The position numbers were made by a program, and so were the translations under genes. A DNA stretch of 64,000 bases. Source: Pelistega sp. GTDB lineage: Bacteria > Pseudomonadota > Gammaproteobacteria > Burkholderiales > Burkholderiaceae_B. The stretch spans positions 31,167 through 95,166 of the forward strand of contig JAUNUI010000010.1 of NCBI GenBank assembly GCA_030538255.1, written 5' to 3'. The notes below the pieces were generated by a model. It had not been told where the DNA came from, did no database searches, and saw only the letters and a program-made list of their open reading frames with translations. Below are positions 3,353 through 55,100 of this stretch, piece after piece. Positions within the stretch are counted from its first letter, which is position 1. Every line of letters starts with the position of its first letter.

Positions 3353-3435
3353 GTGCTTAATCACCCATGGATTACTTCAGCAAAAGAGTGAGTTATTTTT
3401 CTCAATACAATCTGATAAATTTGGTAGAGTGATCA

Positions 3436-3530
3436 ATGATTTACTTAATCGTCGGTGGTGACTTTGATGCTTTGGGTGTGGACATATACTCAACTAAGGT
3501 TATAGTGATACGCCTCATTTGGATATTTGA
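3436..3530 (+). pseudogene. Internally deleted copy of the 5597-5902 membrane-protein gene
   Basis: The first 72 nt are identical, apart from one G-to-A change, to the start of the gene at 5597. The sequence then jumps to the last 23 nt of that gene. The missing part corresponds to 5669-5879 (211 bp, not a multiple of three) and is bracketed by the tetranucleotide AGTG in the intact copy, so the junction is a microhomology deletion that also breaks the frame. The near-identity implies a recent copy. No functional product is expected. Confidence 0.9.
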
Positions 3531-4337: not shown

Positions 4338-4544
4338 ATGAATGATAAAAATGAGTGGGGACTTGGCTCTCGTTTTGTCAATGGCGAAGGTGGAATTATT
4401 GTCCACTCATCTAGTGATGAAAATGAAAGCGACGGTTGGTTTATCCCCCCTGGATCCACGTTCGCCGAAAACGGTGAATTAATCGTTCCACCTGGTTATA
4501 TTTTTAATGAAGAGACTGAAACCTATTTTAAGGAGTCTGAGTGA
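4338..4544 (+). CDS. Small acidic protein coupled to ADP-ribosylglycohydrolase
   Basis: 68-aa protein with no family I recognise. The ATG at 4338 is preceded by GGAG at normal spacing, so I prefer it to the upstream TTG at 4326. The sequence is acidic, and its middle contains two similar phrases: IPPGSTFAENGE and VPPGYIFNEETE. Its stop codon overlaps the GTG start of the ADP-ribosylglycohydrolase gene (GTGA), so the two should be translationally coupled. That tight coupling suggests a joint function, for example a partner or specificity subunit, but nothing in the sequence proves it. Confidence 0.7.
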   Translation: MNDKNEWGLGSRFVNGEGGIIVHSSSDENESDGWFIPPGSTFAENGELIVPPGYIFNEETETYFKESE

Positions 4545-5425
4545 ATCAGCTAAGCGAATGGGCGAGAGGTTGTTTACTGGGGCTTGCTGTTGGTGATGCA
4601 CTAGGTACCACCTTAGAGTTCACGCAAAGAGACAGTCAACCGCATCACACAGAGATGCTTGGTGGTGGCTTCTATGATCTTAAGCCAGGTCAGTGGACAG
4701 ATGACACGGCCATGGCTCTCGCTTTGGCAAATAGTCTAACGAACTGCGAGGGGTTTAATCCTAAGGATGTTTTAGACTGTTTTCTAGCTTGGCTAGATAG
4801 CGGTGATTATTCATGCACGGGTCTCTGCTTTGATATTGGTAATGCTACCCTAGCATCTTTAACAGCTTATCGTCGTACGGGGCAAGTTAGTCCTGTTATG
4901 GATTCTGCAGGTAATGGCTCGTTGATGCGCCTTGCGCCTGCTGTTATATTTGCCAAGAGTCGTGAAAGCGCTGTTCGATTAGCTGTTGAGCAAAGTGAGT
5001 TAACACATGGTGCCGCACAAGCCGTCCAAGCCTGCCAACTGTTCGCTGAGATGCTTTGGGATGTGCGCGAAGGTGCTGACAAAGAACATGTGCTGAGAGC
5101 TAGAAACTGGGAAGGTGATGCAGCAATTGCCGCCATCGCAGCAGGTGCGTGGAAAAATAAATCTCGCAAAGAAATATCGTCATCGGGCTATGTGATTCAC
5201 ACACTTGAAGCCGCATTATGGTGTATTTCTCAAGCGGAAAGCTTTGAGCAAGCCCTTATTATGGCTGTGAATCTAGGTGATGATGCTGATACAGTTGGTG
5301 CCGTTACAGGTCAACTAGCCGGAGCACTCTGGGGCGTCTCTTCTATTCCTAAACGATGGCTTGTACCTCTTGCTTGGAAAAAGGACATCTTAAAAATTGC
5401 AGATCAATTGTCCTCTGTAAAGTAG
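4541..5425 (+). CDS. ADP-ribosylglycohydrolase (DraG/ARH family)
   Basis: Hydrolase expected to remove ADP-ribose from modified proteins, nucleic acids or small molecules using a binuclear metal centre. The 294-aa product has the family hallmarks: GDALG at 18-22, the metal-binding TDDT motif at 53-56, an SAGNGSLMR block near residue 126, and the C-terminal GDDADTVGAVTGQ block at about 244-256 carrying the second set of metal-ligand Asp residues. It starts at a GTG overlapping the stop of the 68-aa gene. DraG itself reverses nitrogenase modification, but no nitrogenase context exists here. A protective role against an ADP-ribosylating toxin or phage-defence effector is possible and unproven. 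Confidence 0.9.
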   Translation: MNQLSEWARGCLLGLAVGDALGTTLEFTQRDSQPHHTEMLGGGFYDLKPGQWTDDTAMALALANSLTNCEGFNPKDVLDCFLAWLDSGDYSCTGLCFDIGNATLASLTAYRRTGQVSPVMDSAGNGSLMRLAPAVIFAKSRESAVRLAVEQSELTHGAAQAVQACQLFAEMLWDVREGADKEHVLRARNWEGDAAIAAIAAGAWKNKSRKEISSSGYVIHTLEAALWCISQAESFEQALIMAVNLGDDADTVGAVTGQLAGALWGVSSIPKRWLVPLAWKKDILKIADQLSSVK

Positions 5426-5596
5426 AATATGTTTTGCTAGTATTTTAGATAAATATTTACCTGTTTAGTTTAGAATGACTTTCTAATTCATACGTTTATC
5501 TATATTCGCGTAATATAAGCGATGAGTTTTATGACTATTTAATAGCACCTTTACGATGATGGTTACCTTGCTTTTTGTTAGCTTTCGAGGAGAAAA

Positions 5597-5902
5597 ATGA
5601 TTTACTTAATCGTCGGTGGTGACTTTGATGCTTTGGGTGTGGGCATATACTCAACTAAGGTTATAGTGGGCAATGAAATTCTTGACCGCTCTGAAATCGT
5701 CGCAAATTTCCCAGTCAAACAGGAAATTGAAGAGAAGTTTAGCTACCCATCCGCTGCACTTGGCTTAGTAGCATTTGGCCCATTAGGTCTTTATCTTGGG
5801 TCTTTGAATAGCAAGATAAAGTCTAAGTATCATGTGGCTATTGTTTTTAAAGATGGTCGGCGTGCTATTGTGGAGAGTGATACGCCTCATTTGGATATTT
5901 GA
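5597..5902 (+). CDS. Small predicted membrane protein, intact copy
   Basis: 101-aa protein of unknown function with a strong ribosome site (GAGGAG) before ATG 5597. A beta-like N-terminus (IYLIVGGDFDALG) is followed by a glycine-rich hydrophobic segment at about 53-70 that may be a short membrane hairpin, then lysines and YHVAIVFKDGRRAIVES. The layout matches the 3678-4091 protein. A truncated copy lies at 3436-3530, so this gene has been duplicated within the patch. Its final codons form a short inverted repeat with the sequence just after the stop (GATACGC 5879-5885, GCGTATC 5904-5910). Confidence 0.75.
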   Translation: MIYLIVGGDFDALGVGIYSTKVIVGNEILDRSEIVANFPVKQEIEEKFSYPSAALGLVAFGPLGLYLGSLNSKIKSKYHVAIVFKDGRRAIVESDTPHLDI

Positions 5903-39480: not shown

Positions 39481-40040
39481 TCTGCTATGCTGCTTGTGGG
39501 TTCGCTATTCAAATTAAAACGATCGCTGTTATTTAAAAGCTATTCGAGTGTAAACATGACCTTGCTGCATCAAGATAAATATGCAACGAGCGTGATTCAG
39601 GTTTATTTTAGGTGCAGTTGCAGCATATTTATGTACTAATCACTGAATATTAAGGCAAGATTTGTAACTTTGAGACAGAGCTGAGTTGATGCGCTTGTAT
39701 CGGAGTTTAAATTTTTATGTGCGTATTTTTTTACTTGGACTGGGGTGGGGTATCTTTTATCGTAGGTGCTAAAGATTAAGCAACTGCAAGTTGATGCCTG
39801 ATCAGCGTTATATGGCTTAAATTTTGCATAAGATTTTTTTCAATACTTGAGTGTTTAAGTAATCTGTAAGATGATGTAAAACACGTATTAGTCTATGAAA
39901 TGGGCTTTACTGATAAAAAATGTCTATGGTATAGTTGTTACATATCAGCAGCTTGCTTAGGATTTAAACTAAGTTCCTCGAGTGAGTTGTAGCGCCTAGT
40001 TTTGACTTAGTGGCCTGATAAACCAATTAAGGAGAATATT
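39481..40040. other. 560-bp intergenic region upstream of the DUF1328 gene
   Basis: No gene or RNA recognised. A possible promoter for the small gene downstream is TTTACT (39906-39911) with TATAGT (39930-39935), 18-bp spacing. The distance from there to the start codon (over 100 nt) leaves room for a long 5' leader. Otherwise nothing stands out. Confidence 0.35.
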
Positions 40041-40199
40041 ATGTTGCACTATGCTGTAGTCTTTTTCGTTATCGCTATTATTGCAGGTATTTTAGGGTTT
40101 GGTGGTATTGCAGGTAGTGCCGTCGGAATCGCTAAAATTCTATTTTTCATCTTCCTCGTGATTGCTGTGCTTTCATTTATCTTTGGACGAGGGCGCTGA
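40041..40199 (+). CDS. DUF1328 (YtjA-family) small membrane protein
   Basis: 52-aa protein, almost entirely hydrophobic: [20 protein letters not shown], then a GGIAG(S)A loop, [19 protein letters not shown] and a basic end. This is the standard two-span DUF1328 layout. AAGGAG lies at ideal spacing before the ATG and a strong terminator follows, so it is a single-gene transcript. Family members are often stress-induced in proteobacteria; function unknown. Confidence 0.93.
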
Positions 40200-40265
40200 G
40201 TGATTTAGCGTATTGTGAGTCATGAGTGATTTCCTGTCTTTTTCGCATTCATGACAGAGCATTGA

Positions 40266-40300
40266 AGAATACCTCGTCGTCTGGGCGAGGTATTTTTTTG
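40266..40300 (+). terminator. Terminator of the DUF1328 gene
   Basis: AATACCTCG (40268-40276) pairs with CGAGGTATT (40286-40294), followed by a run of T. Confidence 0.9.
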
Positions 40301-40423
40301 CGCTTCAGTCTAAGTGCCGTAATCGGCAGGCTGAATAAGCACGCCATTTGAGCGAGGTCGTTTTTTATGTCAATCTATGTCCGTAGTCTATAACAAGCTG
40401 TCGAATCTAGGTAGAGGCGTCAA

Positions 40424-40732
40424 TTAAATCAGTCTCACTAAGGCCGCCGTCAGCACACCACAGCTAATCGCTAATAAGGGCTTTTTCACCAGGAGCATCA
40501 TGATCAAGGTCACTAATAAGGCGAGTCGAGCACCAGTATCACCCATGACGGCAATAGGAGTGAGTAGAGCGATTAATACAGATCCCGACATAGCCTGAAT
40601 AAATTGCCTAACACGCTTACCAATCGGGACGAAGGACATGATATAGACGCCGCCCCAGCGAGTTGCTAGGGTCACAAGACCCATAATTACAACGACGATG
40701 AGGGCGCCAGCACCTGCGATATCAATATTCAT
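40424..40732 (-). CDS. azlD: AzlD-family branched-chain amino acid exporter subunit
   Basis: 102-aa membrane protein with four hydrophobic segments, of the AzlD family that pairs with AzlC to export branched-chain amino acids. RWGGVYIMSFVPIGKRVRQFI near 26-46 and SVLIALLTPIAVMGDTG near 52-68 are typical. Its ATG overlaps the azlC stop (TAATG), so it is translationally coupled. Confidence 0.9.
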   Translation of the reverse strand: MNIDIAGAGALIVVVIMGLVTLATRWGGVYIMSFVPIGKRVRQFIQAMSGSVLIALLTPIAVMGDTGARLALLVTLIMMLLVKKPLLAISCGVLTAALVRLI

Positions 40733-41451
40733 TATTTGGCTCCATCATTAATGAGGACGCCGGTGATACCGCCAGCAAGTGTGCCAACAATAATATGGCT
40801 ATTTTCTGGTAGATACCAGTACGCTAGAAGTGAAGAGATGCCTGCAACTCCCCAGATAAATAGCACGCGCAGATTCTTCTCGCCAGCTACTACCATGGCA
40901 AGTAGGAAGCAGGCCATAATCATATCTAAGCCAAAACTCTTGGGGTCACTAATAATATTGCCGAAAGAGGCGCCAAGCCAGGTACCAATCACCCAGAAAA
41001 GCCAGAGTGCAAAACCTCCCCCAAATACAATACCAAGTCCTGGTTGGCCGCGGCTGAAGGCTTGCATTGCCATGGCCCAGTTGGCGTCGGAGGCGAATAG
41101 GGTGATGCCGTAGCGTTGACCGACAGGTAGATGGCGCAACCATGGGTAAAGAGTGGCACCCATGAGAAGATGGCGTGCATTGATAGCAAATACGGTGACG
41201 ATTAAAGGCAGCAATGGTACCTGTGTGCCCCATAAATCCAAGGCGGCAAATTGCGATGCGCCAGCAAAAACCAGCGCACTCATAAGAAGAATAATTAGGT
41301 GATCTAGTCCCTGCTGTGCCGCTGCCAGACCGAATGCGGCACCGAAGGCCGTGACAAACAGAGAAATGGGTAGGAGTTGTTTAAAACCAGCCCAAATTAA
41401 AGTTTTATTGATACGATGCAGCGCAGCCGAGGACTCTGTAGTTTTTGTCAT
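40732..41451 (-). CDS. azlC: AzlC-family branched-chain amino acid permease
   Basis: 239-aa inner-membrane protein with several spans and the AzlC signature around FAGASQFAALDLWG (about 62-75) and NARHLLMGATLYPWL (about 92-106). Works with AzlD, encoded immediately downstream. A weak GGAAT ribosome site precedes the ATG. No Lrp-type regulator is adjacent. Confidence 0.93.
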   Translation of the reverse strand: MTKTTESSAALHRINKTLIWAGFKQLLPISLFVTAFGAAFGLAAAQQGLDHLIILLMSALVFAGASQFAALDLWGTQVPLLPLIVTVFAINARHLLMGATLYPWLRHLPVGQRYGITLFASDANWAMAMQAFSRGQPGLGIVFGGGFALWLFWVIGTWLGASFGNIISDPKSFGLDMIMACFLLAMVVAGEKNLRVLFIWGVAGISSLLAYWYLPENSHIIVGTLAGGITGVLINDGAK

Positions 41452-41911
41452 GTCTTGTATTCCTTTAGATCCTGTTTCCTGCTATTCCTGCTGAACGTAT
41501 TCATACGCTGATTTCTTTAAATTCAATTTCGCTATTCTGCCTTAGTTTTGAGGTTTAGAGAAGTGTAGCAGTGATTTCGATGAGTGTTTTGTGATAACTA
41601 AGTTATTAAGTCTATGTGTCATTAGGGCTATGTGTTGATGGCGTGATTCCTTAATGATAAGCTTTAAGTGCATAGTGGTAGTTTCCTAGTGGAAAGGTTA
41701 GGGGTGTTGAGCGCCTATTATCACGTTCGAACCGTGCGTCCACTATGTATTCAAATTACACTTGTCTATCCCACTCCGTCAATTCTTGTCTTATTAGCGT
41801 AAGAAACCAGCGCATTTCTACGCATGGATAATCATTCGCAGTTTTAAGCCTCGCGCCAAATGAAACTGGCATACTCATTTACGCAGTTTTAAAATTATGA
41901 AGAGGCGAAAG
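41452..41911. other. Intergenic region between divergent azlC and comM
   Basis: About 460 bp. No gene is supported. It should hold both promoters, but none matches consensus well enough to call. No tRNA or repeat recognised. Confidence 0.35.
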
Positions 41912-43540
41912 ATGAGTCTGGCAGTTTTGTATAGTTGCGCTTTAATGGGGATGAGTGCGCCACGGGTTTGTGTGGAGGTGCATCTTAGCGCAGGTCTGCC
42001 AAATATGACGATTGTTGGCTTACCTGATGCGGGCGTCAGGGAAAGTCGCGAGCGGGTGCGTTCGGCAATTGATACCAGTGGCTACGAGTTCTCGCCTGGG
42101 CGTTTTACAGTGAACTTGTCGCCGACCGCCTTGCCTAAAGAATCAGGACGCTTTGATTTGCCGATTGCTTTAGGGGTCTTATTGGCCACGGGACAAGTAC
42201 GTATTAGAGCTGAGCGCCTGGCTAGCTTAGAACATACCTTCTTTATAGGTGAACTCTCTTTGACGGGCGTGTTAATTCCTGTACAAGCCCCATTAATTAT
42301 TGGCCTATCGATTTATCGTCAATATCCCGATGCGGTACTTGTTATGCCTTATGAGGATGCGCAAGTGGCGGCACGGATTGAGGGCTTGAAGGTAATCGGT
42401 GTGCGTACCCTACAAGAGGCAGTGAGTTATTTGCGTGATGCACAGAGTGTCCAAGCCATGTTGAGTGAGAGTTTGTCTACGGATAGCCAATTAGCTGACA
42501 CGCAGAATGCGGGGAGAACTCAGCAAACAGGGCAAAACCCACAAGCAGGGCAAATCCGGCAAGTGGGAAATTCACCCATTTGCTCGCACCAAGATGCTGA
42601 ATCTTTATGCTTATCGGATATTCGCGGCCAAGCTGAGGCCTGTCATATCCTTGAAGTGGTAGCCAGTGGTGGGCATGGTCTTTTGCTATCAGGTTCCCCT
42701 GGGGTGGGTAAAAGTATGTTGGCGAATCGGTTGCCGACCTTATTGCCCAAGCTTAGTACGCAACAATCACTTGAAGTTATGGCCTTACAGAGTATCTCGC
42801 GGCAGAACCTTAGCCATACGGACTTGCCTTTTTCCCAAGCCGTACCTTTTCGTGCGCCACACCATTCGGCCTCTATGGTGGCCTTGGTTGGTGGGGGTCC
42901 GAATGCTAGTCCAGGTGAAATCAGTATGGCCCATCATGGGGTCTTATTCTTAGATGAATTACCCGAGTTTGATCGGCGTGCTTTAGAGGCTTTGCGTGAA
43001 CCCTTGGAGCGTGGTGAGATTGTGGTCACACGGGCTAAGCGCTCCCAAGTCTATCCGGCACGCTTTCAACTGATTGCTGCGCATAACCCTTGTCCTTGTG
43101 GCTATTTAGGCCATCCCGATAAGCCCTGCGTGTGTACCCCTGATGCTATTCATCGCTATCAGAATAAGCTCTCAGGGCCTTTGTTAGATCGGATTGATGT
43201 GCATTGGCATGTACGTCCAGTCGAGAAAGATTGGATCCGTCAAGCACCAGCGGAGAGCTCTGCACAGGTTCGAGCCCGTGTTATGGCCTGCCGTGAGCGA
43301 CAATATGCACGACAAGGCTGCTTGAATGCACATATGAATGAGAGCCAGATTGGGCAATATTGTGTCTTATCACCCCCTATACAACAGTTATTAGAGAACT
43401 CAATAGCACGCTTTGCTTGGTCAGCGCGGGTGACGCATCGTGTCTTGAAAGTTACGCGAACCATTGCTGATATGCATGAGCATAAGCAAATCACGGAACA
43501 AGACTTCTTGCAGGCAGTGTCTTGTCGCCCCGAGCGCTAG
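41912..43540 (+). CDS. comM: YifB/ComM-family Mg-chelatase-like AAA+ ATPase
   Basis: Hexameric helicase-like protein that promotes branch migration during natural transformation. The 542-aa product starts MSLAVLYSCALMGMSAP and contains the N-terminal Lon-like fold (GLPNMTIVGLPDAGVRESRERV), Walker A GSPGVGKSM near 261-269, Walker B VLFLDELPEF near 343-352, and an NPCPCGYLG zinc-like segment near 393-401. I use ATG 41912, preceded by GAAGAGGCG; ATG 41897 overlaps that site. A Gln/Gly-rich insert of about 35 residues near 190-225 is longer than usual. The gene is intact, but its last 41 codons and downstream DNA are duplicated beyond a brnTA cassette. Confidence 0.93.
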   Translation: MSLAVLYSCALMGMSAPRVCVEVHLSAGLPNMTIVGLPDAGVRESRERVRSAIDTSGYEFSPGRFTVNLSPTALPKESGRFDLPIALGVLLATGQVRIRAERLASLEHTFFIGELSLTGVLIPVQAPLIIGLSIYRQYPDAVLVMPYEDAQVAARIEGLKVIGVRTLQEAVSYLRDAQSVQAMLSESLSTDSQLADTQNAGRTQQTGQNPQAGQIRQVGNSPICSHQDAESLCLSDIRGQAEACHILEVVASGGHGLLLSGSPGVGKSMLANRLPTLLPKLSTQQSLEVMALQSISRQNLSHTDLPFSQAVPFRAPHHSASMVALVGGGPNASPGEISMAHHGVLFLDELPEFDRRALEALREPLERGEIVVTRAKRSQVYPARFQLIAAHNPCPCGYLGHPDKPCVCTPDAIHRYQNKLSGPLLDRIDVHWHVRPVEKDWIRQAPAESSAQVRARVMACRERQYARQGCLNAHMNESQIGQYCVLSPPIQQLLENSIARFAWSARVTHRVLKVTRTIADMHEHKQITEQDFLQAVSCRPER

Positions 43541-43624
43541 GTGAACAATAAACCTGCTTAAGTTTAATCAGCTTATATTCTTCAAAAAGTATAAGCCTTC
43601 ATATATCACCCTGAGCGCTAAGGT
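43418..43624. repeat. comM-end direct repeat, left copy
   Basis: Covers the last 41 codons of comM and about 85 bp beyond. It matches 44274-44473: the coding part differs at roughly 11 of 123 positions, and the downstream part is more diverged but shares GTGAACAATAAACC, AAAAAGTATAAGCC and CTAAGGT in order. Confidence 0.9.
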
Positions 43625-43705
43625 GTTTTGCAGGAATGCGTACTTATATTTTTTAAAAGCTTTACGTAACTACAAAACGAAACTACAATTTACACTAAGC
43701 GTACA

Positions 43706-43983
43706 ATGGAACTTGAATGGGATGCTGATAAAGCAGCACGAAACCTGAAAAAACATGGTGTTTCCTTCGAGGATGCCAAGTTTGTATTCTATGATTATGG
43801 GCGGATTGAAACCTACGATGGTCGGGATGAACACGGAGAAGACCGTGGGGCACGATTGGTTTTGTCTATTCCGTTGTCCTGTATGTAGTCTATACCATTC
43901 GAGATGAGGACACTGTCCGCCTTATCTCTGCGAGGAAAGCCGATGCCAAGGAAACAAAGCAATATTGTCAAGCGAACTCTTGA
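43706..43983 (+). pseudogene. brnT: Frameshifted brnT toxin gene
   Basis: BrnT-type toxin (RelE-fold RNase of the BrnTA system). The first about 49 codons read MELEWDADKAARNLKKHGVS and continue to GEDRGA. The reading frame then runs out at 43888, but the +2 frame continues as TIGFVYSVVLYVVYTIRDED and LISARKADAKETKQ, the normal C-terminal half including the ISARKA motif, to a stop at 43981. So one net base is missing or extra at about 43840-43865. The repaired gene would be about 92 aa, normal for BrnT, and would overlap the brnA start by 41 bp. Confidence 0.85.
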
Positions 43984-44263
43984 CTTAAAGAAAGAGCCTC
44001 AATTGAGTGCCAAGCAAAAAGCGCGACTTGATACTGTGGCCTTAATGCCAGATGAGCAGATCGATTACAGCGATGCGCCTAAACGAGTTGATGCAGTATG
44101 GATGAAAGCGGCAGAGCAATTACCTCAAGCTAAAAAACAAATCACCTTGCGTATTGATGCCGATGTGTTGGCATTCTTCAAAGGCACTGGAGCACGGTAT
44201 CAGTCCCGTATGAATGCTGTTCTGCGCTCTTACGTTGAGGCGCACAAAAGTAGCGCGAAATGA
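43943..44263 (+). CDS. brnA: BrnA-family antitoxin
   Basis: 106-aa antitoxin. A basic N-terminus (MPRKQSNIVKRTL) and central disordered region precede the C-terminal DNA-binding part KKQITLRIDADVLAFFKGTGARYQSRMNAVLRSYV (about 67-101), a ribbon-helix-helix segment diagnostic of BrnA. ATG 43943 lies inside the end of brnT, as in functional brnTA operons. The antitoxin frame looks intact while the toxin is frameshifted, so this may be an orphaned antitoxin. Confidence 0.88.
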   Translation: MPRKQSNIVKRTLDLKKEPQLSAKQKARLDTVALMPDEQIDYSDAPKRVDAVWMKAAEQLPQAKKQITLRIDADVLAFFKGTGARYQSRMNAVLRSYVEAHKSSAK

Positions 44264-44273
44264 GCCATTCACC

Positions 44274-44473
44274 TGGTCAGCGCGGGTGACACATCGTGTC
44301 TTGAAAGTCGCGCGAACCATCGCTGATATTCATGAGCATGAGCAAATCACGGAACAAGACTTCTTACAGGCCGTAGCTTGTCGGCCTGAGCGCTAGGTGA
44401 ACAATAAACCCGATTACCTTGAATAATAGGTTCTTAAAAAGTATAAGCCCTTATAATCGCCTTGCGTACTAAG
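44274..44473 (+). pseudogene. Duplicated comM 3' fragment, right copy
   Basis: Contains codons for the last 41 residues of ComM (from WSARVTHRVLKV to RPER and stop at 44396) plus about 77 bp of downstream sequence. It differs from the intact comM end by a few replacements (Thr to Ala, Met to Ile, Lys to Glu, Ser to Ala) and silent changes. It has no start or ATPase part and cannot function. It flanks the brnTA cassette on the right. Confidence 0.9.
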
Positions 44474-44484
44474 GTACTAGAGCA

Positions 44485-45393
44485 TCACTTCCGATTCGAT
44501 AACAGCAAACCAATCGCAATTGCACTAATCCCGATGAGGTGATAGCTATGGATAGCTTCATTCAAAAATAGAGCAGAGAGCAGTACGCCGAACACGGGCA
44601 TTAAGTGAATCGATAAGCCTGCACGTACTGGGCCGACGCGAGCTACTGCGAAGGTATACAGTAAATACGCCACCACCGATGGCAGAATACCGACATAAGC
44701 CAGTGCCAAGATGGATTCAGTACGCCACACAATCTGTGCGCCTGTGCTGAGTTCCCATAGACAGAAGGGCAGCAAGCAGAGAATCGCGATAATAATTTGT
44801 GCCCCCATTAAGCCAGTACGGTTAATCGAAGTAGGGATGGCTTTTACCCATAAGGTATAGAATGCCCAACAAACCATGGCGGTAAAGACCAGCACATCGC
44901 CTGGATTGAAGGCTAGCTGTAATAAGCGTGATACGTCACCATGCAGAATAATCGTGAGCACGCCGATTAAGGATATGCTTAAGCCCAAGAGCTGCATGAA
45001 CTGGAGTTTTTGCCGATAGAATGCGCAGCCGATCATCACAATCAGTACAGGGATGCATGAGTTTAAAAGTAAAGCATTGTTCGTGGTGGTGCTGTGCAGC
45101 CCTGCATAAATTAAGGTATTAAAAGAAGCTACCCCGACAATCCCTGTACCCATCACGAGCCAGCGATGCTGCCAATAGAGACGCCAATCGCGCTGCATGA
45201 GTTTCCAGGCGAATGGCAGAATAATCAAAAGTGCAATCACCCAGCGACCGAAAGATAAGGTCATGGGTGGAATGTCATTGCGTACCGCACGCCCCACCAC
45301 AAAGTTGCCTGCCCACAACAGTGGTGGAAGAACCAGTAAGGGGAGGGTATTGAGCCATGAGTGGTTTACTTGTTTGAGGCTTGATGAAGACAT
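44485..45393 (-). CDS. EamA/DMT-superfamily transporter
   Basis: 302-aa inner-membrane protein with about ten hydrophobic segments in two EamA repeats (PPLLWAGNFVVGRAV at the start of repeat 1; FTAMVCWAFYTLW at the start of repeat 2). Drug/metabolite-type exporter, substrate unknown, often amino acids or nucleosides. No strong ribosome site precedes the ATG. Convergent with the comM/brnTA block. Confidence 0.92.
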   Translation of the reverse strand: MSSSSLKQVNHSWLNTLPLLVLPPLLWAGNFVVGRAVRNDIPPMTLSFGRWVIALLIILPFAWKLMQRDWRLYWQHRWLVMGTGIVGVASFNTLIYAGLHSTTTNNALLLNSCIPVLIVMIGCAFYRQKLQFMQLLGLSISLIGVLTIILHGDVSRLLQLAFNPGDVLVFTAMVCWAFYTLWVKAIPTSINRTGLMGAQIIIAILCLLPFCLWELSTGAQIVWRTESILALAYVGILPSVVAYLLYTFAVARVGPVRAGLSIHLMPVFGVLLSALFLNEAIHSYHLIGISAIAIGLLLSNRK

Positions 45394-45679
45394 TAGAACG
45401 TGAATGCAAAAATAGGTATGGCAATGATTGGAAATGCTAGCTATACATAGTTAATGGATAGAACAGGCGTGAACATGCTTGGCAAAAACTAGGCAATGCT
45501 AGATAAGGCTAGGCATGATTATACCTTAGCCAGTCGGAATAGAGACTTATCTTATTGGCGGGGCTCTGTTTGGGTAGCCATGGTTCATTATTAACCTTGG
45601 CTCGCACGTGCGGCTCGTCTATGGTCTTTGCCTTGTGCGCTTAGCTAGTTGATGGCAATGATAGCAGGCGCAGGGGTGC
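45394..45679. other. Intergenic stretch, probably decayed DNA
   Basis: No recognisable gene. It precedes the kup fragment and may contain more of that gene decayed beyond recognition. Words such as GGCAATGCTAG recur in degenerate form. Confidence 0.3.
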
Positions 45680-45868
45680 GAGCTAGATCCAATGGTGTGT
45701 AGTTATTTCATTTCCAGAGAAACGATTATTCCACGTGCCGGCACGTCGATGCCACTGTGGCAGGCGAAAGTTTTCGCTCAACTCCATCGCAATGCTAGTT
45801 CTGTCGCTGATTTTCTTAAACTACCCAGTGGCTCGGTTTTGGAGTTGGGGGCTAAAGTAGATTACTAG
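45680..45868 (+). pseudogene. 3' remnant of a kup potassium transporter gene
   Basis: The frame reads ELDPMV, then SYFISRETIIPRAGT, MPLWQAKVFAQLHRNA and ending LPSGSVLELGAKVDY with a TAG at 45866. These phrases match the C-terminal cytoplasmic tail of KUP potassium uptake proteins (SRE(T)xxPRxGTxMxLWxxxxFxxxxRNA, then xVxELG). Only about 62 codons remain of a gene normally over 600 codons, and an in-frame stop lies just upstream (45662). It is a gene relic between two minus-strand genes. Confidence 0.8.
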
Positions 45869-45952
45869 TGCGACCTTATGCTTTATTGCGCTAAGTTGCG
45901 GTATCTTTGCGAGATGAAAAGACATAGTAATTGCATTAGTTTGAGTGTCGTC

Positions 45953-47908
45953 TTATTCTTTCTGTGCTGCTGGGCTCTCATAAGGTGAGTGAACAATAAT
46001 ACGGGTTTCACCTGGTTCTGAGTATATTTCTAACCAGCCCGCTAGGCGCTCTAAGCGCCGTTGCATACTGCTCATCCCAACACTAATGCCTGAACGCATA
46101 ATATCATTGACCTGAAAACCAACCCCATTATCAATAATATTCAGCTCGATCTCATCTTCTTTGACAATGCAGCGAAAGGTGACTTCACTGGCTTGACTAT
46201 GCTTGATCACATTGGTCAGGGCTTCCTCGGCAACACGATATAAGGTGAGGCATTGAATTGCGCTGGGTGTAGACACCCACTTAGAGTCAACTTCCCAGTG
46301 TAATTTAATCTCAATATCATCAAAAACCTGGATAAAGCGATTACGTAAGGGGGCTAACCAATAAATCGGATTGCTAGGAAGCTTAGTTTGGCTTTCTGAA
46401 AAACTATCAATAATTTGTCGTAAGTCATTGCGTAATAGACTGAGAATTGATAAGGTTTGCTTATTATTTAAGGGCTCTTTAGCGTTCGATACTTCGAGAA
46501 TAGAGCGAACGATTGAGCTACCCAATCCATCATGCAAGTCATGTGCAAGATTGAGACGCTCTTTCAGTTGATTGTTTTTAATGCTCAGTTGATGGCGGTT
46601 ATTAAGTGTTGCCTCCAACGCTTGTTCAGCGGCAAGAATCTTTTGGTGAAGCTCATCATTAAAGTCTTCAATCTTCTGTAAACTTTGCGTCAATCGCATG
46701 GCTAAAATAATACTTAAAAAAATCGCAAACACCAGCGAGGTATAGGGCAAGACAAGCGAAATATTACCCAACATATGAAACAATGATAGTACGGAGATAG
46801 TACTTAAAATTAGACAGGTAATTAAGGTAATGGCAAGTAGCCAGAGCTCAACTTGACGAGTCTGAAAACACAGGTGACTGACAAAAATGCTATTAATGCA
46901 AAAAATAATAATTGAGGCGTAAAATACAAATAATAAAGTGCTATGGACAAGATCGAATGGAGCCAACCAAATAGTGGCGCTTAATACCAAGCATAAGGCG
47001 AAGAATAGCTTCTCTACCCGTGGAAATCGCTTATTGAGAAAGCGCCATGAGAATATAGCAAAGCAGAAGGTATAGCCTAAAAATAGAACGACGTTAAGTT
47101 TGGTGAAGCTAAGGGTATTGCTAAAAGGCGCTGTTTCTGTAATCAGCGTATTGGCAATAAACGCAACCCAGAAAATTGAGGTTAAGGTATACCAGCCATA
47201 AGCCACTTCTTGGCGGCGAAATAACCAAATACAAGTACACACCATGCCTAAGGTAATCGAGAAAATAATATTCAGATAGTAAATTGTGCGTTGATTCCAT
47301 TCGGTCTGCTTATAGAGAGCATTAATCTCATGCAATGAGCCGAAGGTGATATTACCTAAACCAGGTGAAGTGATGAAATCACCCACGACGCGTACATACA
47401 GCTGATTGATCGCATCAGTTTTGAGGGTAGCAATTGGCAAGGTCAGATAACGCGGTACATTCCAACTGCGCGAAAGGGGCTCTGTAAGATGCGAATCAGT
47501 CCATAGAAGATGCTCATTAATCCAGACACTACCCGCCATATTGATGCCACTAATCAGTAAGGCCAGTGGCTCAGTAGGTGGCTTACTACATTCTGCATGC
47601 CAGTCAATGCGATACCAAGTAACGCCAGTGTAGCTAGGCCAGCGTTTTGTCCAGATATCGGGTAATGTTACCGCTTGCCATTCGGCCTTAAGGTGTGTAT
47701 CAAAGCTTGCGGGTGATTCAGCATCTGTGCGGGTGACGTAGATACCGTCCATCCTAGGTGTACAGGTTTTTGAGTCTTGGGTAGAATCATGCGCGATCGT
47801 TAGTCCCTCAAGCGGCGCTAAGGTCTGGGCTTGGGCCAGAGCCCAGAGACTTGGCCCGATGATAAGGCTCATCAACAAGAGAAGAGAGTGGATCGAATAG
47901 CGCATCAT
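45953..47908 (-). CDS. Sensor histidine kinase with 7TMR-DISM-like sensor
   Basis: 651-aa membrane kinase. A signal peptide (to about 28) precedes a periplasmic beta-sandwich domain (about 45-175) resembling 7TMR-DISM extracellular domains (GVTWYRIDWHAE, SGINMAGSVWINE). About seven membrane spans follow (200-410). The HisKA_3 dimerisation helix carries LAHDLHDGLGSS with the phospho-His near 455-459, and the HATPase domain has NVIKHSQAS and DNGVGF. This is NarX/UhpB-class architecture. It follows the response-regulator gene by 15 bp; both are divergent from the giant autotransporter. Confidence 0.93.
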   Translation of the reverse strand: MMRYSIHSLLLLMSLIIGPSLWALAQAQTLAPLEGLTIAHDSTQDSKTCTPRMDGIYVTRTDAESPASFDTHLKAEWQAVTLPDIWTKRWPSYTGVTWYRIDWHAECSKPPTEPLALLISGINMAGSVWINEHLLWTDSHLTEPLSRSWNVPRYLTLPIATLKTDAINQLYVRVVGDFITSPGLGNITFGSLHEINALYKQTEWNQRTIYYLNIIFSITLGMVCTCIWLFRRQEVAYGWYTLTSIFWVAFIANTLITETAPFSNTLSFTKLNVVLFLGYTFCFAIFSWRFLNKRFPRVEKLFFALCLVLSATIWLAPFDLVHSTLLFVFYASIIIFCINSIFVSHLCFQTRQVELWLLAITLITCLILSTISVLSLFHMLGNISLVLPYTSLVFAIFLSIILAMRLTQSLQKIEDFNDELHQKILAAEQALEATLNNRHQLSIKNNQLKERLNLAHDLHDGLGSSIVRSILEVSNAKEPLNNKQTLSILSLLRNDLRQIIDSFSESQTKLPSNPIYWLAPLRNRFIQVFDDIEIKLHWEVDSKWVSTPSAIQCLTLYRVAEEALTNVIKHSQASEVTFRCIVKEDEIELNIIDNGVGFQVNDIMRSGISVGMSSMQRRLERLAGWLEIYSEPGETRIIVHSPYESPAAQKE

Positions 47909-47923
47909 GCCCGACTGTAGACC

Positions 47924-48625
47924 TTAAATTAAACCAATTTCGCGTGCCTTACTAATGGCCTTGGTGCGATTACTAACGGCTAGTTTACGATAGACATGAC
48001 GAATATGCGTCTCAACTGTGTGCTTTGATAGGAAAATATGCTCCGCAATTTCTTGATTGCTTAATCCTGATGCCACTAAAGTGAGAATTTGGTGTTCACG
48101 CTCAGTGAGATTAACGTCTTGTGCCTCATGCAGGTCTTGGGGAGAATGAGTACTTAGACTTTGTTCAGAAGTGATGGTAGCTGTATTGTTCTTAACAGGT
48201 AATTTATTCAGAATATGACGCGCGATAAAAGGATCAATTGGTGCACCACCTTTCAAGATGCTGCGAATTGAGACCTTGAGCTCAATATCATCACGCTCCT
48301 TCAGAATATAACCCGTAGCCCCTGCTTGTAAGGCCTCAATAATCATCTCCTCGGTACTCCAAGCAGAGATCACCAAAATAGGAATATCAGGACGCACCTT
48401 GCTGAGTAAGTCGATAATGGAAATACCACTGCCATCAGGCAGACCGAGATCAATCAGCGCTAAGGCAATGTGTTGTGCATCAAGATCATTTTGTGCTTCG
48501 GTGACGGAGCTTTTGAAAAATAAATCACTGGCTTGGTAGCCAATATCTAGCAGAATAGCCTGCAGACGCTGCTGCATAAAGCTGTCGTCTTCAACCACCA
48601 ATACGGGTGCAATTAAATTAATCAT
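47924..48625 (-). CDS. NarL/LuxR-family response regulator
   Basis: 233-aa two-component regulator. Receiver domain 1-125 with acidic pocket VVEDD (11-14) and phospho-acceptor Asp59 in LALIDLGLPDGSG. A linker (about 140-170) leads to a LuxR-type HTH (about 170-230: LTEREHQILTLVASGLSNQEIAEHIFLSKHTVETHIRHVYRKL). Cognate kinase encoded 15 bp downstream. The next gene, across a 570-bp divergent region, is the 8.1-kb autotransporter, its most obvious candidate target. Confidence 0.95.
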   Translation of the reverse strand: MINLIAPVLVVEDDSFMQQRLQAILLDIGYQASDLFFKSSVTEAQNDLDAQHIALALIDLGLPDGSGISIIDLLSKVRPDIPILVISAWSTEEMIIEALQAGATGYILKERDDIELKVSIRSILKGGAPIDPFIARHILNKLPVKNNTATITSEQSLSTHSPQDLHEAQDVNLTEREHQILTLVASGLSNQEIAEHIFLSKHTVETHIRHVYRKLAVSNRTKAISKAREIGLI

Positions 48626-49195
48626 TAAAGTCTCTCTTTAAGGTGATTGCTCTCATGTGGCTCTCGTTCATACAGTTTGTTCACATAGTATTAAGCAACT
48701 CTCGTTCACGCAGGGGGGGAGCTTTACATTTCACTTCCGTCTGCATATTAATGAGTAACTCGTACTTATTGTAGTTTCTTTGCTTATTAGTTTTGCCTTC
48801 ATGACAATTGCGCCATTGGGCAAATTTGAGTGTCTTGTATGACGGCTTAAGTCATTGTATGGAAAACAACAAGAAAACAAAATCACTATTTCTAGTGATT
48901 TTCAAGCAAATGTAAAAATGTTTTAATTTTTGGCATGTTCTGAGACATTTGCAAAAAGCTTTTATAGAAATTAGTTTCAATAGTTGAGGCTAATTGATAG
49001 CAAATCGCTTGTAGATTCAATTAAATACTTTAGGGAAACACAAGCTTCCTTAATTTTGTGAAGGTCTCGTTCTATATACATTTCGCTACTTTTCCTAGAA
49101 GAGCATCTAAGGCAGATAAAACTAGCCATAGATTGCCGCTGTAAACTTCGCTTCTCTCTTAAAAAGTGCGCTAATCAAACCAATGAGGTTATCCC
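48626..49195. promoter_or_regulatory. Divergent control region, two-component system / autotransporter
   Basis: 570 bp without a gene. CTCTCGTTCA occurs twice (48661-48670 and 48699-48708), 38 bp apart, near the response-regulator start. AATCACTA-TTTC-TAGTGATT (48881-48900) is a perfect 8-bp inverted repeat near the middle. Both are candidate binding sites or, for the hairpin, a short terminator-like structure. Nothing else, and no reliable -10/-35 pair, is called. Confidence 0.45.
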
Positions 49196-52100
49196 ATGAA
49201 TAAGACTTATCAACAACTTACACATACTGCTTTGGCCCAAAAAACAAGCGGCGCTTTTCAAATAAAACCGATAGTCCTTCTTATTCAACTAGCATTCAGC
49301 TTGAGTGCTATACCTGCTTTTGCACAAGCACAGACTTGCGTAGTATCAAATTGTAGTATTAGTGGTGATTACACAAGCGCAGTAGACTTAAGTCACTTTG
49401 CCGGGAAGGATGGTGTCAAAGAAGGTGCAAATTCTGAGATTCGTGCAGGTAAGTCGGGAGCCTCGATTAAGCTAACAACAGCAGCAGACACCTCTGTCTC
49501 CCAAGCGCTGAATCGGCCAGCGATTACTATCAATACCAAAGGGGGGCATGGGGCGCCAAAGACTGATAACGTGAGAAAGCATGGCGGACGCGGAGGCAAT
49601 GCGGGTAGTGTTGAACTTTCATTGCAACATAAGGTGAACCTAAGTTCAGCGGGTCAAGGTATAGTGATCAATGCGCAAGGCGGAAATGCGGCAGGATACT
49701 CTATTGATAGTGATCGTATTCCCGGAGGTTCGGGTGGATCCGTACATATCAAACAAGCGACACAAAGTAGTCTCGTCGCTAATCGTCAGCCCATGAACTC
49801 AAGCCTAGGTATAACAAGAGAAGTTATTGATATCAATACCAGTGGTGGTAATGGCGTACAAGGTATGCAAGAAGGCATAACGAGTCTTGATGATGGATCC
49901 AAAGCAGGGAATGCGGGTAACGTCACGCTTGACTTACAAGGGCAGCTGGATTTGCAATCCTCTACTGCGGGTCTTATAAAAATTGTGAGTAATGGCGGCA
50001 ATGGGGGCTCTGTTGACCATGCAATTACGGCTAGGCGTCATTATGCTGGAGAGGCGGGTGTGGGCGGTTCTCAAACCGTCATTCTAGGGCAACAAGGGAA
50101 AAGTAGTCAGATGCTTACCCAGGGTTCCTCTGTTGCGGCAATCGATATGGTGAGTGCGGGCGGTAGAGGGGGGGACTCTAGGAAAGGCTCGGTTGGTAAA
50201 GAGTCCAAAGCAACGAGTGGCGGTAAGGGAGGTGACCTTAGTTTAACGCTTAAGCATATGGATGTAGAAACGAAGGGAGCTCATAGTAGCGCTCTGGTTT
50301 TGCGTAGTCGTGGTGGTGTGGGTGGTGGTCCTGGGGATGGTAGCGACAAGACCCCTCAACATCTGCGCGGTGAAGGTGGAGCAGGGGGAAATATTTCTGT
50401 TACTCTGGATGAGTTTACGGATATTCAGACAGCAGGTGTTAACAGTGATGGGATACATGCTTATTCTGCAGGTGGTGGTGGTAGTCGAGGAACTGATGGA
50501 ATTATCACGGCGGGCAATGGTGCTCGAGGTGGTAGGGGAGGTGATATTACGATTCAAAGTTTGGCGCATATCCAAACCAGGGGGCAAGAATCGAATGCGA
50601 TTTATGTGGAGAGTTCAGGAGGCTCTGCGGGTGATGGTGGCTCAGCAACTTTTGGTCATGGTGGCGCTGGTGGCCGTGCCGGTATGGGGGGCAATGTTCA
50701 GATTAGCTCGAATGGTGCTTTAGAAACGAGCGCTAATGACGCCCATGTGATTCTGGCGCAAAGTATTGGTGGAACCCGTGGTGAAATTACTCAGGCTGAT
50801 GTTAAGAGAAAAAATAACGATGATACCTATAGCTTAGGTGGGGTAGACCATACCTCAGACAATGATAAAGCATCAGCCGCTCAAGTCATTATTAACAATA
50901 ATAATTATGTGACGTCTAAAGGCAATAATGCCTCTGCGGTATTAGCCCAGAGTATTGGCGGTGGCGGTGGTGCAGGTGGCTCTAGTTTTGGCTTTGTGGC
51001 AATTGGCGGTAGGGCGGGAGCTGGTGGTAACGGCGGTGAAGTTCGGGTAAATAATCATGGATTTATGAGTACGCAAGGCAATTCCTCTGCGGTTATTGTC
51101 GCGCAAAGTATTGGCGGTGGCGGTGGCCTAGGCGGAAGAGCTGGCAGTGTTGGTGTGTTACTCCCCAGTGTGTCAATAGGCGGTGCTGCTGGTGGCGGGG
51201 GTCATGGTGGTAGAGTCGAGGTAGATAATCAGAATAGTCTCATCAGTAGCGGTGATTCTTCAGCTGCCATTCTCGCTCAGAGTATTGGTGGTGGCGGTGG
51301 TATCGGTGGTAATGTTAAGGGTGTCGGCGCATTTCAAATAACGAGTTTTGCCTTAGGTGCTTCAGGAGGCAGGGGTGGGGACGCGGGTACAGTGTCTGTG
51401 AAGAATACTGGCACAGCGACCACAGTGGGCGCCAACTCTCATGTCTTGATAGCGCAAAGCATTGGCGGCGGCGGTGGCATGGGCGGGAATTCAAGCTCGG
51501 TCTCAGGTGCTAATTTAAATAGTATTGTTCTCGGCGGTCGTGGTAGCGTGGGTGGCAAGGGAGGTGATATTCACTTGACGAATGAAGGGCAATTACTCAG
51601 CACAGGGGCGGAAAGTCATGCTGTATTTGCCCAAAGTATTGGCGGCGGTGGTGGCGCGGGAGGATCAGCGGCTAACTTAAGTGTTGTAGGCTTTCCTGCG
51701 GGTACTTCAGGGCAACAAGTGACCAGTCTGATTTCAGTCGGTGGTAAAGGTGGCCAAGGTAACCAGGGCGGTTCAGTACGCTTAGACAATCAGGGTACTA
51801 TTCGTACCACAGGCAATGACTCAACCGCCGTGCTTATGCAAAGTATTGGCGGTGGCGGCGGTAAGGGTGGTGGTGCCAGTGCTAGTACGATTGAAATTCC
51901 ACGGGGTGATTCTTTGACCCTTAAAGTGGCTGTTGGTGGCTCTGGTGGTAAGGGTAACGCAGGTGGGAATGTACACTTAGATAATTCAGGGAGCATCGAG
52001 ACCGCAGGACAACTCTCATCGGGCATTGCGTTGAAAAGCATTGGTGGCGGTGGGGGTGATGGCGCAGTCGGCTCTACCAATGGTTTTGTTTATAGTGGCA

Positions 52101-55100
52101 ATGGTGCGATTGACAAAGCCACCGCCGCGAAGACTCGCTATGAGTTAGTTGCGGCGGTCGGCGGTAGTGGTGGCGATGGGGATGTCGGTGGGAAGCTTAG
52201 CCTAAAGAATACAGGTCAGATTAAGACTTATGGTGATATTTCTCCCGCTATTCTGATGCAGAGTATTGGTGGCGGTGGTGGTCAAGGGGCTGCCTCACAT
52301 GCGGATTCCACTAAGCATGGGCGTGGTATTACCTTGGAAATTGGTGGCAATGGTACCAAAGGCAGTCACGGCGGTAAGGTTGAGCTAGATAACCATGGCA
52401 GCATTATTACGTATGGGCGCTTATCGACAGCATTACATGCGCAAAGTATCGGCGGTGGTGGTGGTACGGGTGGTTCGACGGGTGCCTCAGCCAGTGCGGC
52501 AGAGAAAGCGATGTATGACTTGAATAAACAAATCGTTGATGAAACGAAAAAGGCGCAGGATATCGGTACTAAGTATCAAGATTATGTGAATAAGGCCTTA
52601 GAAAAAGTCATTGCCCAACCTGCTAAAGACAAGACTGAAGAGAAAACAGGGAAAAAAACCGAGTCGCCTGAGAAGAAGTTTGATCTTAAAATTGCCTTAG
52701 GTGGTCAAGGGGGAAATGGTGGTGATGGTGGTGAAGTGACCTTAACGAACCAGAACTTGCTGAGCACTGAAGGTGATTTAAGCACCGTGATATTGGCACA
52801 AAGTATTGGTGGTGGTGGTGGTAGCGGGGGTTCCGCCTCAGCCACCAGTACGGATGCTAAAGCCACACAGATCAATCTTGCGCTAGGTGGCTCTGGTGCT
52901 GGTGGCGGCATGGGTGGTGCTGTGACGGTGAATAACTGGCATACGATTAGTTCATCAGGACTGTCTAGCCAGGGTATTATTGCCCAAAGTATCGGCGGCG
53001 GTGGCGGTCATGGTGGTAGTAGTGAGGTGGACTCAGCTAAGACAGAGCAAAGCCAGATTGGACTGTCCTTAGGTGGTCGCGGCGGTCGTGCAGGTGATGG
53101 CAGCCAAGTTGTGGTTAAAAACACCAAACTTATAGACACACGAGGTGATTTGAGTACTGCTGTTCTCGCGCAAAGTATTGGTGGTGGCGGTGGTAGTGGT
53201 GCTGCTGGCAAAAGCAATAGTAAAGAAGCGAAGAGTGTCACTGTTAATCTAAGTCTAGGTGGTTCTGGTGGGACAGGCGGCAAAGGTGGGCAGGTGATTG
53301 TGCAAAACTTCGATACGATTAATACCGTAGGCAATCTCAGCTATGGTGTGGTCGCGCAAAGCATTGGCGGCGGTGGTGGTCATGGTGGCGCAAGTAGTAG
53401 CACTTCAGGCAAGAGTGAGAAGAATCAAGTGACGCTGGCTCTAGGCGGCAGTGGCGGCTCGGGTGGAGAAGGTGGCAAGGTTGAGGTGAAAAATGAGAAA
53501 TATATTCAAACGGCTGGCCATCAAAGTATTGCAGTCTTGGCCCAAAGTATCGGCGGCGGTGGCGGTAGTGGTGGTGCCACCATCACCAATGGCGCCGAAA
53601 GTAAAGAGCAACAACTAAGTGTTACCTTAGGTGGCTCTGGTGGCAGTGCAGGACGTGGTGGTGTTGTGAAGATTGATAGTCTTCACAGTATCCATAGCGC
53701 TGATGCACAAGCGATTGTGGCACAAAGTATTGGCGGTGGCGGCGGTGTCGGTGGCTCTGCTGAGGCTACGCTAGAAGGTCAAAAAGAAACCGCGAGCAAA
53801 ACCACAGTCGGCTTAACGCTTGGCGGATCGGGTGGCTCAGGCGGTAATGGCGGTAGTATTGAAATTAATCATTGGAATCAACGCTTAAGCTCTAATGCCT
53901 TGGCTGGCTCTGTTGTACTCGCGCAGAGTATCGGTGGTGGCGGTGGCAGCGCTGGCTTTTCTCAGCTTAAACAAGAAGGTAAGACAGAGACTTCTCTGGC
54001 TATTGCCCTAGGGGGCAAAGGCGCAGCAGGAGGCCATGGTGGCGAAGTGAAGATTAATAATGATGGTGAGGTCTTAGCGACACGTGGCTCCACCATGGGA
54101 ATTGTGGCACAAAGCATTGGCGGCGGTGGTGGTAATACTAACTTTACCCAAAGCACAGGCAATCAAGCCAAGAGAAGCATGAACATTGCGCTTGGTGGGA
54201 CGAGCGGTACAGCAGGCGAGGGTGGTACGGTGCGCGTGAATCAAATCGCACCGCAGTTGATGCAAACCATGGGGATTGGGATTTTAGCGCAGAGTATTGG
54301 TGGCGGCGGTGGCCTAGTGTCAACCGCTGTCGCCAATGCAGCGAGTAGTTCAGGTTTTGCCATGAATCTTGTACTGGGAGGTAGTCGTGACAATGAAGAA
54401 GCTCACGGTCATGGTGGCCAGGTTAATGTCCTTGTTAAGAATGCTGGCATTAAAACCCAGGGTAATTACGCCTCTGCCGTCGTCGCGCAAAGTATCGGTG
54501 GTGGTGGTGGATTAATTGACTTAAGCAACCGAACGGTGAATCAGCGAAGCAATGTGGAGAAATTACAAATCGGTGGTATCAAGGCTCAAGGTGATGGTCA
54601 AGTCGTGAATGTTAATTTGGAGACAGGTCTGACCACGCTTGGTAAAAATAGTCATGGTATTGTTGCTCAAAGTATTGGCAGTGGCGGTGGTTTGGTGATT
54701 GCCGATGGTATTAACTTGCCGTCTTCTATGCGTGTTGGTGGAAAAGAGACGAATGCTCATGCGAATTCGGTGAATATCAATCTCAATGCGAATGCACGCA
54801 TTCAGACAGTAGGCGATGGGAGTTACGGTATTGTGGCGCAAAGTATCGGCGGTGGTGGCGGTCTAGCGGCAGATACGTCTAATCTGGATCTTACCGCCTT
54901 GCGTAAGAACTTGAAAGAGAACGATGGCGGCAAGAGCAAAAGCAAGGGCGGTGATATTCAGATGAAGATTCAAGGGTATATCGCCACCATGGGTCGCAAT
55001 GCGCAAGGTATTTTTGCACAAAGTATTTCTGAAGGTGGGGGCTTAAGTTCTTGGGGAATGGGTTCACAATCCTTGAGTTCAAAAGGTCATGCAGGTGAAA

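What the first reader, a model, noticed from the sequence alone, without database searches (positions are those of the whole stretch)
43418..44473. brnTA cassette trapped between two diverged copies of the comM 3' end
The last 41 codons of comM and about 80 bp beyond are present twice in direct orientation, 856 bp apart, with only brnT-brnA between them. comM stays intact. The copies differ by roughly 9% in the coding part and more downstream, so this is not a fresh tandem duplication: one copy probably arrived with the cassette from a related strain. The layout resembles elements that restore the gene end they enter, but no integrase is present. comM is a known island entry site in Acinetobacter (AbaR), though there the insertion is internal.
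Basis: partly seen in the sequence, partly recalled or inferred. Interest (0 to 1): 0.72.

Follow-up and report, generated by a model that had tools for sequence, protein, structure and literature searches.

The report
Toxin-antitoxin pair between comM end copies
A small plasmid-type toxin-antitoxin gene pair, its toxin gene broken, sits between two different versions of the tail end of the DNA-uptake gene comM, most likely left there by ordinary recombination with DNA from a relative; a similar arrangement was seen in a few other bacteria.

Summary
The last 41 codons of comM (123 nt, stop included) recur 856 nt downstream at 111/123 identity, and similarity runs on about 84 nt. Only brnTA lies between. 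The brnTA block is 79% identical to brnTA of plasmids (mostly mobilizable), and the plasmid-like sequence stops 2 nt after the brnA stop, within 8 nt of the second comM end. Eight of 12 coding differences are synonymous, which fits two alleles better than a decaying duplicate. No conspecific genome was reachable and outgroups give no polarity, so which copy is native stays open. The architecture is rare but recurs: intact comM plus a second downstream comM end in 4 of 343 other Burkholderiales genomes with a comM-tail match; one, of another family, holds a different BrnT pair between the ends. A control (mfd) gave 0 of 384; the contrast is marginal (P = 0.049; 0.10 without one doubtful case). 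The duplicated length differs in each case, which argues against a fixed attachment site. Best reading: homology-assisted insertion (single crossover of a trimmed circle, or one homologous plus one illegitimate joint), an experimentally known route, with comM's tail regenerated as a by-product.

The parts
41897..43540 (+). comM (ComM/YifB, Mg-chelatase-like ATPase), intact, 547 aa
43418..43540 (+). comM 3' end, copy 1 (last 41 codons, stop included), in frame with comM
43541..43624 (+). downstream stretch of copy 1, 64/79 ungapped columns identical to that of copy 2
43660..44265 (+). plasmid-like brnTA block, 79.1% identical to plasmid brnTA (limits of the blastn match)
43661..43689 (+). promoter-like site; the stretch around TACAAT also resembles the plasmid sequence before brnT (consensus match only; 3 found in the region against 2.2 expected)
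43706..43888 (+). brnT, N-terminal piece (60 aa, PF04365 positions 1-43 of 77)
43846..43980 (+). brnT, C-terminal piece in another reading frame (45 aa, 71% to plasmid BrnT)
43943..44263 (+). brnA antitoxin gene, intact (106 aa, PF14384; 84% to plasmid BrnA)
44274..44396 (+). comM 3' end, copy 2 (orphan); it may start at 44268, where codons F-T-W resemble F-S-W or F-A-W of other ComM (by eye)
44397..44475 (+). downstream stretch of copy 2, reaching nearly to eamA
44485..45393 (-). eamA-type transporter gene, right-hand neighbour

Best explanation
Two diverged alleles of the comM end were brought together by homology-assisted insertion of a DNA piece from a related bacterium. That piece carried a comM 3' end, the stretch behind it and a brnTA pair of plasmid type. 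It entered either as a trimmed circle by one crossover in comM, or as linear DNA by one homologous and one illegitimate joint. Both routes leave comM complete, the foreign pair behind it, and a leftover comM tail of arbitrary length further on. No dedicated mobile element is needed. Shown: the anatomy, the plasmid kinship of brnTA, the mainly synonymous divergence, recurrence with variable edges elsewhere. Inferred: direction of transfer, donor, and which of the two routes. brnT has lost its frame, so the pair is probably a relic with a surviving antitoxin.
For: 8 of 12 coding differences are synonymous; P(at most 4 non-synonymous of 12) = 0.002 if all changes were random (kappa 2). The plasmid-like block ends at 44265, within 8 nt of copy 2, so cassette and tail share a junction. 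Other genomes show intact comM, cargo and a second tail with other duplicated lengths: about 28 codons (G281), 60 (G1000), 92 (G494), 127 (G282). G494 holds a different BrnT pair (its BrnT 48% to the plasmid type). Of the other 20 genomes of G494's genus, 18 showed one comM end over roughly 400 nt, two only short pieces, and none a second end. In E. coli, 56 of 60 recombinants of a trimmed plasmid gave the PCR sign of a partial duplication of the target gene, and 14 sequenced ones confirmed it at 109-950 bp (PMC3240628, section 12 read).
Against: Polarity is not resolved here nor in G494. A model in which half the changes fell on a free-drifting copy is not rejected, P = 0.20. The coding versus non-coding difference in divergence is not significant (P = 0.09). 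No donor holding comM end plus brnTA was found in plasmids or phages, nor, by a 23-nt exact pattern only, in viral contigs. One comparable case, G281, may be a plain local duplication. Competence genes of this genome other than comM were not searched.
Confidence: 0.6

Rival explanations
1. Old local tandem duplication of the comM end that diverged in place, with brnTA arriving later between the copies.
For: A model with half of the changes neutral is not rejected (P = 0.20). G281 looks like a recent case: 147/150 identical copies with an IS110 transposase gene between them.
Against: 8 of 12 changes synonymous and no stop in the orphan copy (no stop is expected in over half of random draws, so that part is weak). 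brnTA would have had to land within 8 nt of copy 2 by chance.
Confidence: 0.2
2. Relic or satellite of a site-specific element that carries its own comM end and restores the gene on entry, the recombinase lost or acting in trans.
For: comM is a proven target of Tn6022-like and Tsy elements (PMC10293859, passages). In G586, G681 and G955 a comM fragment starts at one conserved place (CGYLG codons) beside an HTH gene.
Against: No recombinase between the copies. The duplicated stretches of G000, G281, G282, G494 and G1000 start at different codons. No plasmid or phage record matched comM end plus brnTA.
Confidence: 0.12
3. Scar of a Tn6022/Tsy-type insertion into comM that was later repaired by recombination, leaving cargo and the old tail.
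For: In 9 fetched loci of 9 genomes (G270, G319, G482, G503, G526, G555, G644, G728, G773) the comM tail piece has about 197-223 codons and starts, in eight of them, some 16-26 codons before the Walker B codons, as expected for internal splits; two of these sit at contig edges.
Against: The leftover here has 41 codons, not about 215, and no transposon gene is seen between the copies.
Confidence: 0.05

Closest known systems
Homology-facilitated illegitimate recombination and single-crossover insertion of trimmed DNA (PMC3240628; passages and section 12 seen)
   Same: Foreign DNA flanked by a partial duplication of the target gene, of variable length (109-950 bp there; 84-462 nt of coding sequence here and in relatives).
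   Different: Laboratory plasmid at lacZ of E. coli, by conjugation; here natural, between diverged alleles, with no selection known.
AbaR/Tn6022 and Tsy elements in comM (PMC10293859; passages seen)
   Same: Same target gene; they leave a comM 3' portion behind cargo.
   Different: They use TnsF, hit the Walker B region and split comM; here comM is whole and no transposase or recombinase lies between the copies.
3'-end islands such as SGI1 at trmE (PMC8409611, start of abstract in the listing) and phage 21/e14 at icd (recalled, no call)
   Same: Entry at a gene's 3' end; for phage 21/e14 the entering DNA supplies a replacement end (recalled).
   Different: They carry an integrase and use one fixed site (recalled); not met here.
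brnTA of plasmids, for example pKPC-cd17 (L161, typed IncP,IncU, MOBP, mobilizable)
   Same: brnT-brnA order, overlap and promoter stretch; 79% nucleotide identity.
   Different: In L160 and L161 the pair follows traI and brnT is annotated whole; here it follows comM and brnT is broken.

Membership tests
Homology-assisted insertion (single crossover or HFIR) | Foreign insert flanked by a direct partial duplication of a resident gene | tested here: met
Homology-assisted insertion (single crossover or HFIR) | Arbitrary, not fixed, length of the duplicated stretch across events | tested here: met
   about 28, 41, 60, 92, 127 codons in G281, G000, G1000, G494, G282
Homology-assisted insertion (single crossover or HFIR) | Empty site in conspecifics and identified donor allele | not testable with these tools
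   one genome per species held; closest genus relatives at 58-62% ComM identity
Homology-assisted insertion (single crossover or HFIR) | Microhomology at the illegitimate joint (often, not always) | tested here: inconclusive
   donor sequence beyond the joint unknown; joint lies between 44265 and 44274
Site-specific gene-end-restoring element | Integrase or other recombinase inside | tested here: not met
   only brnT pieces and brnA between the copies
Site-specific gene-end-restoring element | One fixed insertion point | tested here: not met
   different left edges in each comparable genome
Tn6022/Tsy comM elements | comM split near the Walker B codons | tested here: not met
   comM whole; the extra fragment is the last 41 codons
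brnTA type II toxin-antitoxin | BrnA antitoxin with PF14384 | tested here: met
   E 3.7e-18
brnTA type II toxin-antitoxin | Open BrnT reading frame | tested here: not met
   two pieces in two frames
brnTA type II toxin-antitoxin | RNase toxicity neutralised by BrnA | not tested
   bench question

The most novel reading that the evidence does not exclude
The comM tail is a recurrent landing place for small selfish or defence cassettes. Transformable bacteria keep adding TA or dGTPase genes behind comM through homology-assisted insertion, and each event regenerates comM, so the very gene that helps integrate foreign DNA is spared and marked by a stub of its old tail. Two BrnT pairs of different make in two families would be convergent cases of this.
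Probability: 0.15. Interest if true: 0.6.

Novelty: new member of a known kind. Interest (0 to 1): 0.4.

Why it matters
If right, a duplicated gene tail of arbitrary length is a readable scar of homology-assisted gene capture in nature, a process that I know mainly from laboratory assays. The scar can be searched for in any gene, and the divergence between the two tails helps to date and source the donor. At comM it would show that DNA can be added next to a transformation gene without breaking it, unlike the comM-disrupting transposons already described.

Tried and rejected
Polarity by outgroups: G003-G006 share A at one differing residue (as copy 2) and M at another (as copy 1); no answer (tails, by eye). 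Polarity in G494 with 17 sister-species ends: mixed. A donor in plasmids or phages: the plasmid matches listed cover brnTA only (25 of 172 records shown), phages none. Viral contigs: BrnA query gave one 43% relative; a 23-nt pattern over the comM end gave none. Conserved synteny: none of eamA, azlC, azlD or the two-component genes beside comM was found next to comM in six genus relatives and one other family member, within the 4.7-9 kb stretches fetched. RNA families (43000-45500) and tRNAs (40000-49000): none. Papers: searches (comM with brnT, insertion hotspot, natural transformation, duplication, toxin-antitoxin) listed nothing on duplicated comM ends, judged by titles and abstract starts; one search found no paper; only PMC10293859 (passages) and PMC3240628 (passages, section 12) were opened, and the library lacks most subscription journals. 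Assembly artefact: unlikely for the repeat, open for the brnT break.

Rows dropped before counting: of 12 other Burkholderiales genomes with two or more Mg_chelatase_C hits, G107, G395, G410, G580, G587 and G614 had a weak second hit on another contig, G332 had two overlapping hits of what looks like one broken comM, and G526 had hits on different contigs. In the class sample G678, G679, G744 and G865 had weak hits elsewhere, G920 looks like one broken comM, and G681 had no intact comM on its contig. In one search, L054 and L056 gave a 40% hit about 5.5 kb upstream of comM, not counted as a second tail.

Full report
What is there. By the named relatives of its ComM (Advenella at 56-57%, then other Alcaligenaceae) it is an alcaligenacean. 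comM is intact and ends at 43540. Its last 123 nt recur at 44274-44396 with 111 matches, and the 84 nt behind the stop recur with 64 of 79 ungapped columns identical. The downstream similarity alone scores 63 against at most 25 in 1000 shuffles, so it is real. Three searches of the assembly found two comM ends and no third.

What lies between. A BrnT-type toxin gene and a BrnA antitoxin gene. BrnA is whole. brnT is not: the N-terminal 60-aa ORF covers positions 1-43 of 77 of the family profile, and the rest matches in another frame. Intact brnT genes are annotated in plasmids. The block 43660-44265 aligns at 79.1% with plasmid brnTA over 606 nt in the best of 172 plasmid records, of which 129 are typed mobilizable; the example L161 is typed IncP,IncU, MOBP. 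The plasmid-like sequence ends 2 nt past the brnA stop. Copy 2 starts at 44274, possibly at 44268.

How the copies diverged. Of 12 coding differences 8 are synonymous and 4 not; dS 0.36, dN 0.045. If all 12 were random, 4 or fewer non-synonymous has P = 0.002 (kappa 2). If half fell on a free-drifting copy the result is unremarkable, P = 0.20. Non-coding divergence is higher but not significantly (P = 0.09). The longest identical tract is 25 nt, so loss of the cassette by recombination between the tails should be slow (inference). The data favour two alleles that diverged while both were working comM ends, without proving it.

Which copy is native. Not answerable here. Seven genomes of the genus are held including this one, and none of the other six gave a BrnA match. 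Two differing residues point opposite ways (by eye).

Is it unique? In 268 genomes of the family, 192 gave a match to the comM tail; besides the window's genome only G180 and G253 showed two matches, and these lie on different contigs. In 399 Burkholderiales genomes drawn evenly, 344 had a Mg_chelatase_C match. Apart from the window's genome, 12 had two or more hits, and 4 of 343 had an intact comM with a second comM end downstream on the same strand and contig: G281, G282, G494, G586. In a class-wide sample of 369 genomes, 320 with a match, one further such genome was found, G1000; G281 was in that sample too. The control, the C-terminal domain of mfd, matched in 384 of 399 genomes drawn the same way (the handles listed coincide); two genomes had a second hit, both weak (E 0.004 and 0.009) and inside other open frames of 579 and 801 aa, so 0 of 384. 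Fisher 4/343 against 0/384 gives P = 0.049, and 3/343, leaving out G586 for the reason below, gives P = 0.10. That is marginal and rests on one control gene. In a further 121 comM loci (74 named contigs, 29 of the family, 18 of G494's genus; 7 with under 1 kb of downstream sequence), two short second tails were seen downstream (L046, 16 residues; L039, 13 residues), and no BrnT.

What the other cases hold. G494: a BrnT gene (PF04365, E 7e-27; 48% to plasmid BrnT) and a small partner ORF without a match in Pfam, PADLOC or NCBIfam, then a 257/267 comM tail with one in-frame stop. G282: an HD-domain gene matching the PADLOC dGTPase model (E 5e-122; it may equally be a housekeeping dgt), then a 322/357 tail. 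G281: an IS110 transposase gene, then a 147/150 tail with flank. G1000: two small genes on the other strand, one GspG-like below the curated cut-off, then a tail with 152 of 181 columns identical. G586: about 16 kb with what look like two transporter operons (one binding-protein ORF checked), then a tail at 338/440. The duplicated stretch starts about 28, 92, 127, 60 and 154 codons from the end in G281, G494, G282, G1000 and G586, and 41 in the window. In G494's genus 21 genomes were searched with the comM-brnT-tail DNA; of the other 20, 18 showed one comM end over roughly 400 nt, two only short pieces, and none a second tail. Sister alleles did not tell its copies apart.

A separate kind. In G586 (twice), G681 and G955 the fragment starts at the same conserved codons (CGYLG) with an HTH gene on the opposite strand against it, which looks site-specific. 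G586 may therefore belong there and not with the window.

Mechanism. Variable length, no recombinase, diverged copies and a cassette that shares its junction with the leftover tail are what homology-assisted insertion leaves. The experimental precedent is in E. coli: 56 of 60 recombinants from a trimmed plasmid gave the PCR sign of a partial duplication of the target gene, 14 sequenced ones confirmed it at 109-950 bp, and the authors explain it by single crossover of a circular molecule that had lost part of its homologous stretch; 4 of 60 appeared to be HFIR, and 3 of those 4 had no homology at the joint (PMC3240628, section 12). The same paper's introduction says HFIR generally brings a deletion (passages); that makes the single-crossover route the better fit here. 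The choice between the routes is not shown.

Comparison. Tn6022 and Tsy use TnsF to hit the Walker B region of comM (PMC10293859, passages); the window fails that test. Gene-end-restoring islands need an integrase and a fixed site (recalled); both were tested and not met. The thing works like a homology-assisted capture and is filed so with moderate confidence.

Verdict. Real, uncommon, mostly explained by a known process; the recurrence at comM with a second BrnT pair of different make is the part worth following.

Noticed in passing
L163 (G586), L167 (G586), L171 (G681), L179 (G955): A comM 3' fragment starting at the conserved CGYLG codons abuts an HTH gene on the opposite strand; in L171 a second, truncated HTH-comM tail follows in tandem. 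In L179 one neighbouring gene matches E1-E2 and two match mad8 defence models. It may be a comM-associated insertion unit distinct from Tn6022/Tsy; no literature search was made for it.
   Followed up: partly
L169 (G526), L172-L178 and L180 (G503, G319, G482, G270, G644, G555, G728, G773): comM tail pieces of about 197-223 codons, starting near the Walker B codons, as expected for internal splits by Tn6022/Tsy-like elements; the transposons themselves were not looked for. L175 also holds a piece with codons 1-39 about 1.7 kb upstream.
   Followed up: partly
L164 2867-4708 (G281): An IS110-type transposase gene lies between 98% identical comM tails, and the 15-nt CACCTTTTTGCTGCA occurs at both inner junctions.
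   Followed up: no
window 3435-3507 and 5596-5668: Two 73-nt direct repeats, 99% identical, 2161 nt apart, flanking an ADP-ribosylglycohydrolase-like gene at 4541-5425 (named by eye).
   Followed up: no
window 49196-57322: A 2708-aa protein with many QSIGGGGG repeats and a barrel-like end, looking like a giant autotransporter (by eye).
   Followed up: no
L131 (G155): Second-closest BrnA in the family search (72%), with BrnT-like C-terminal motifs appearing twice around a masked stretch (by eye).
   Followed up: no
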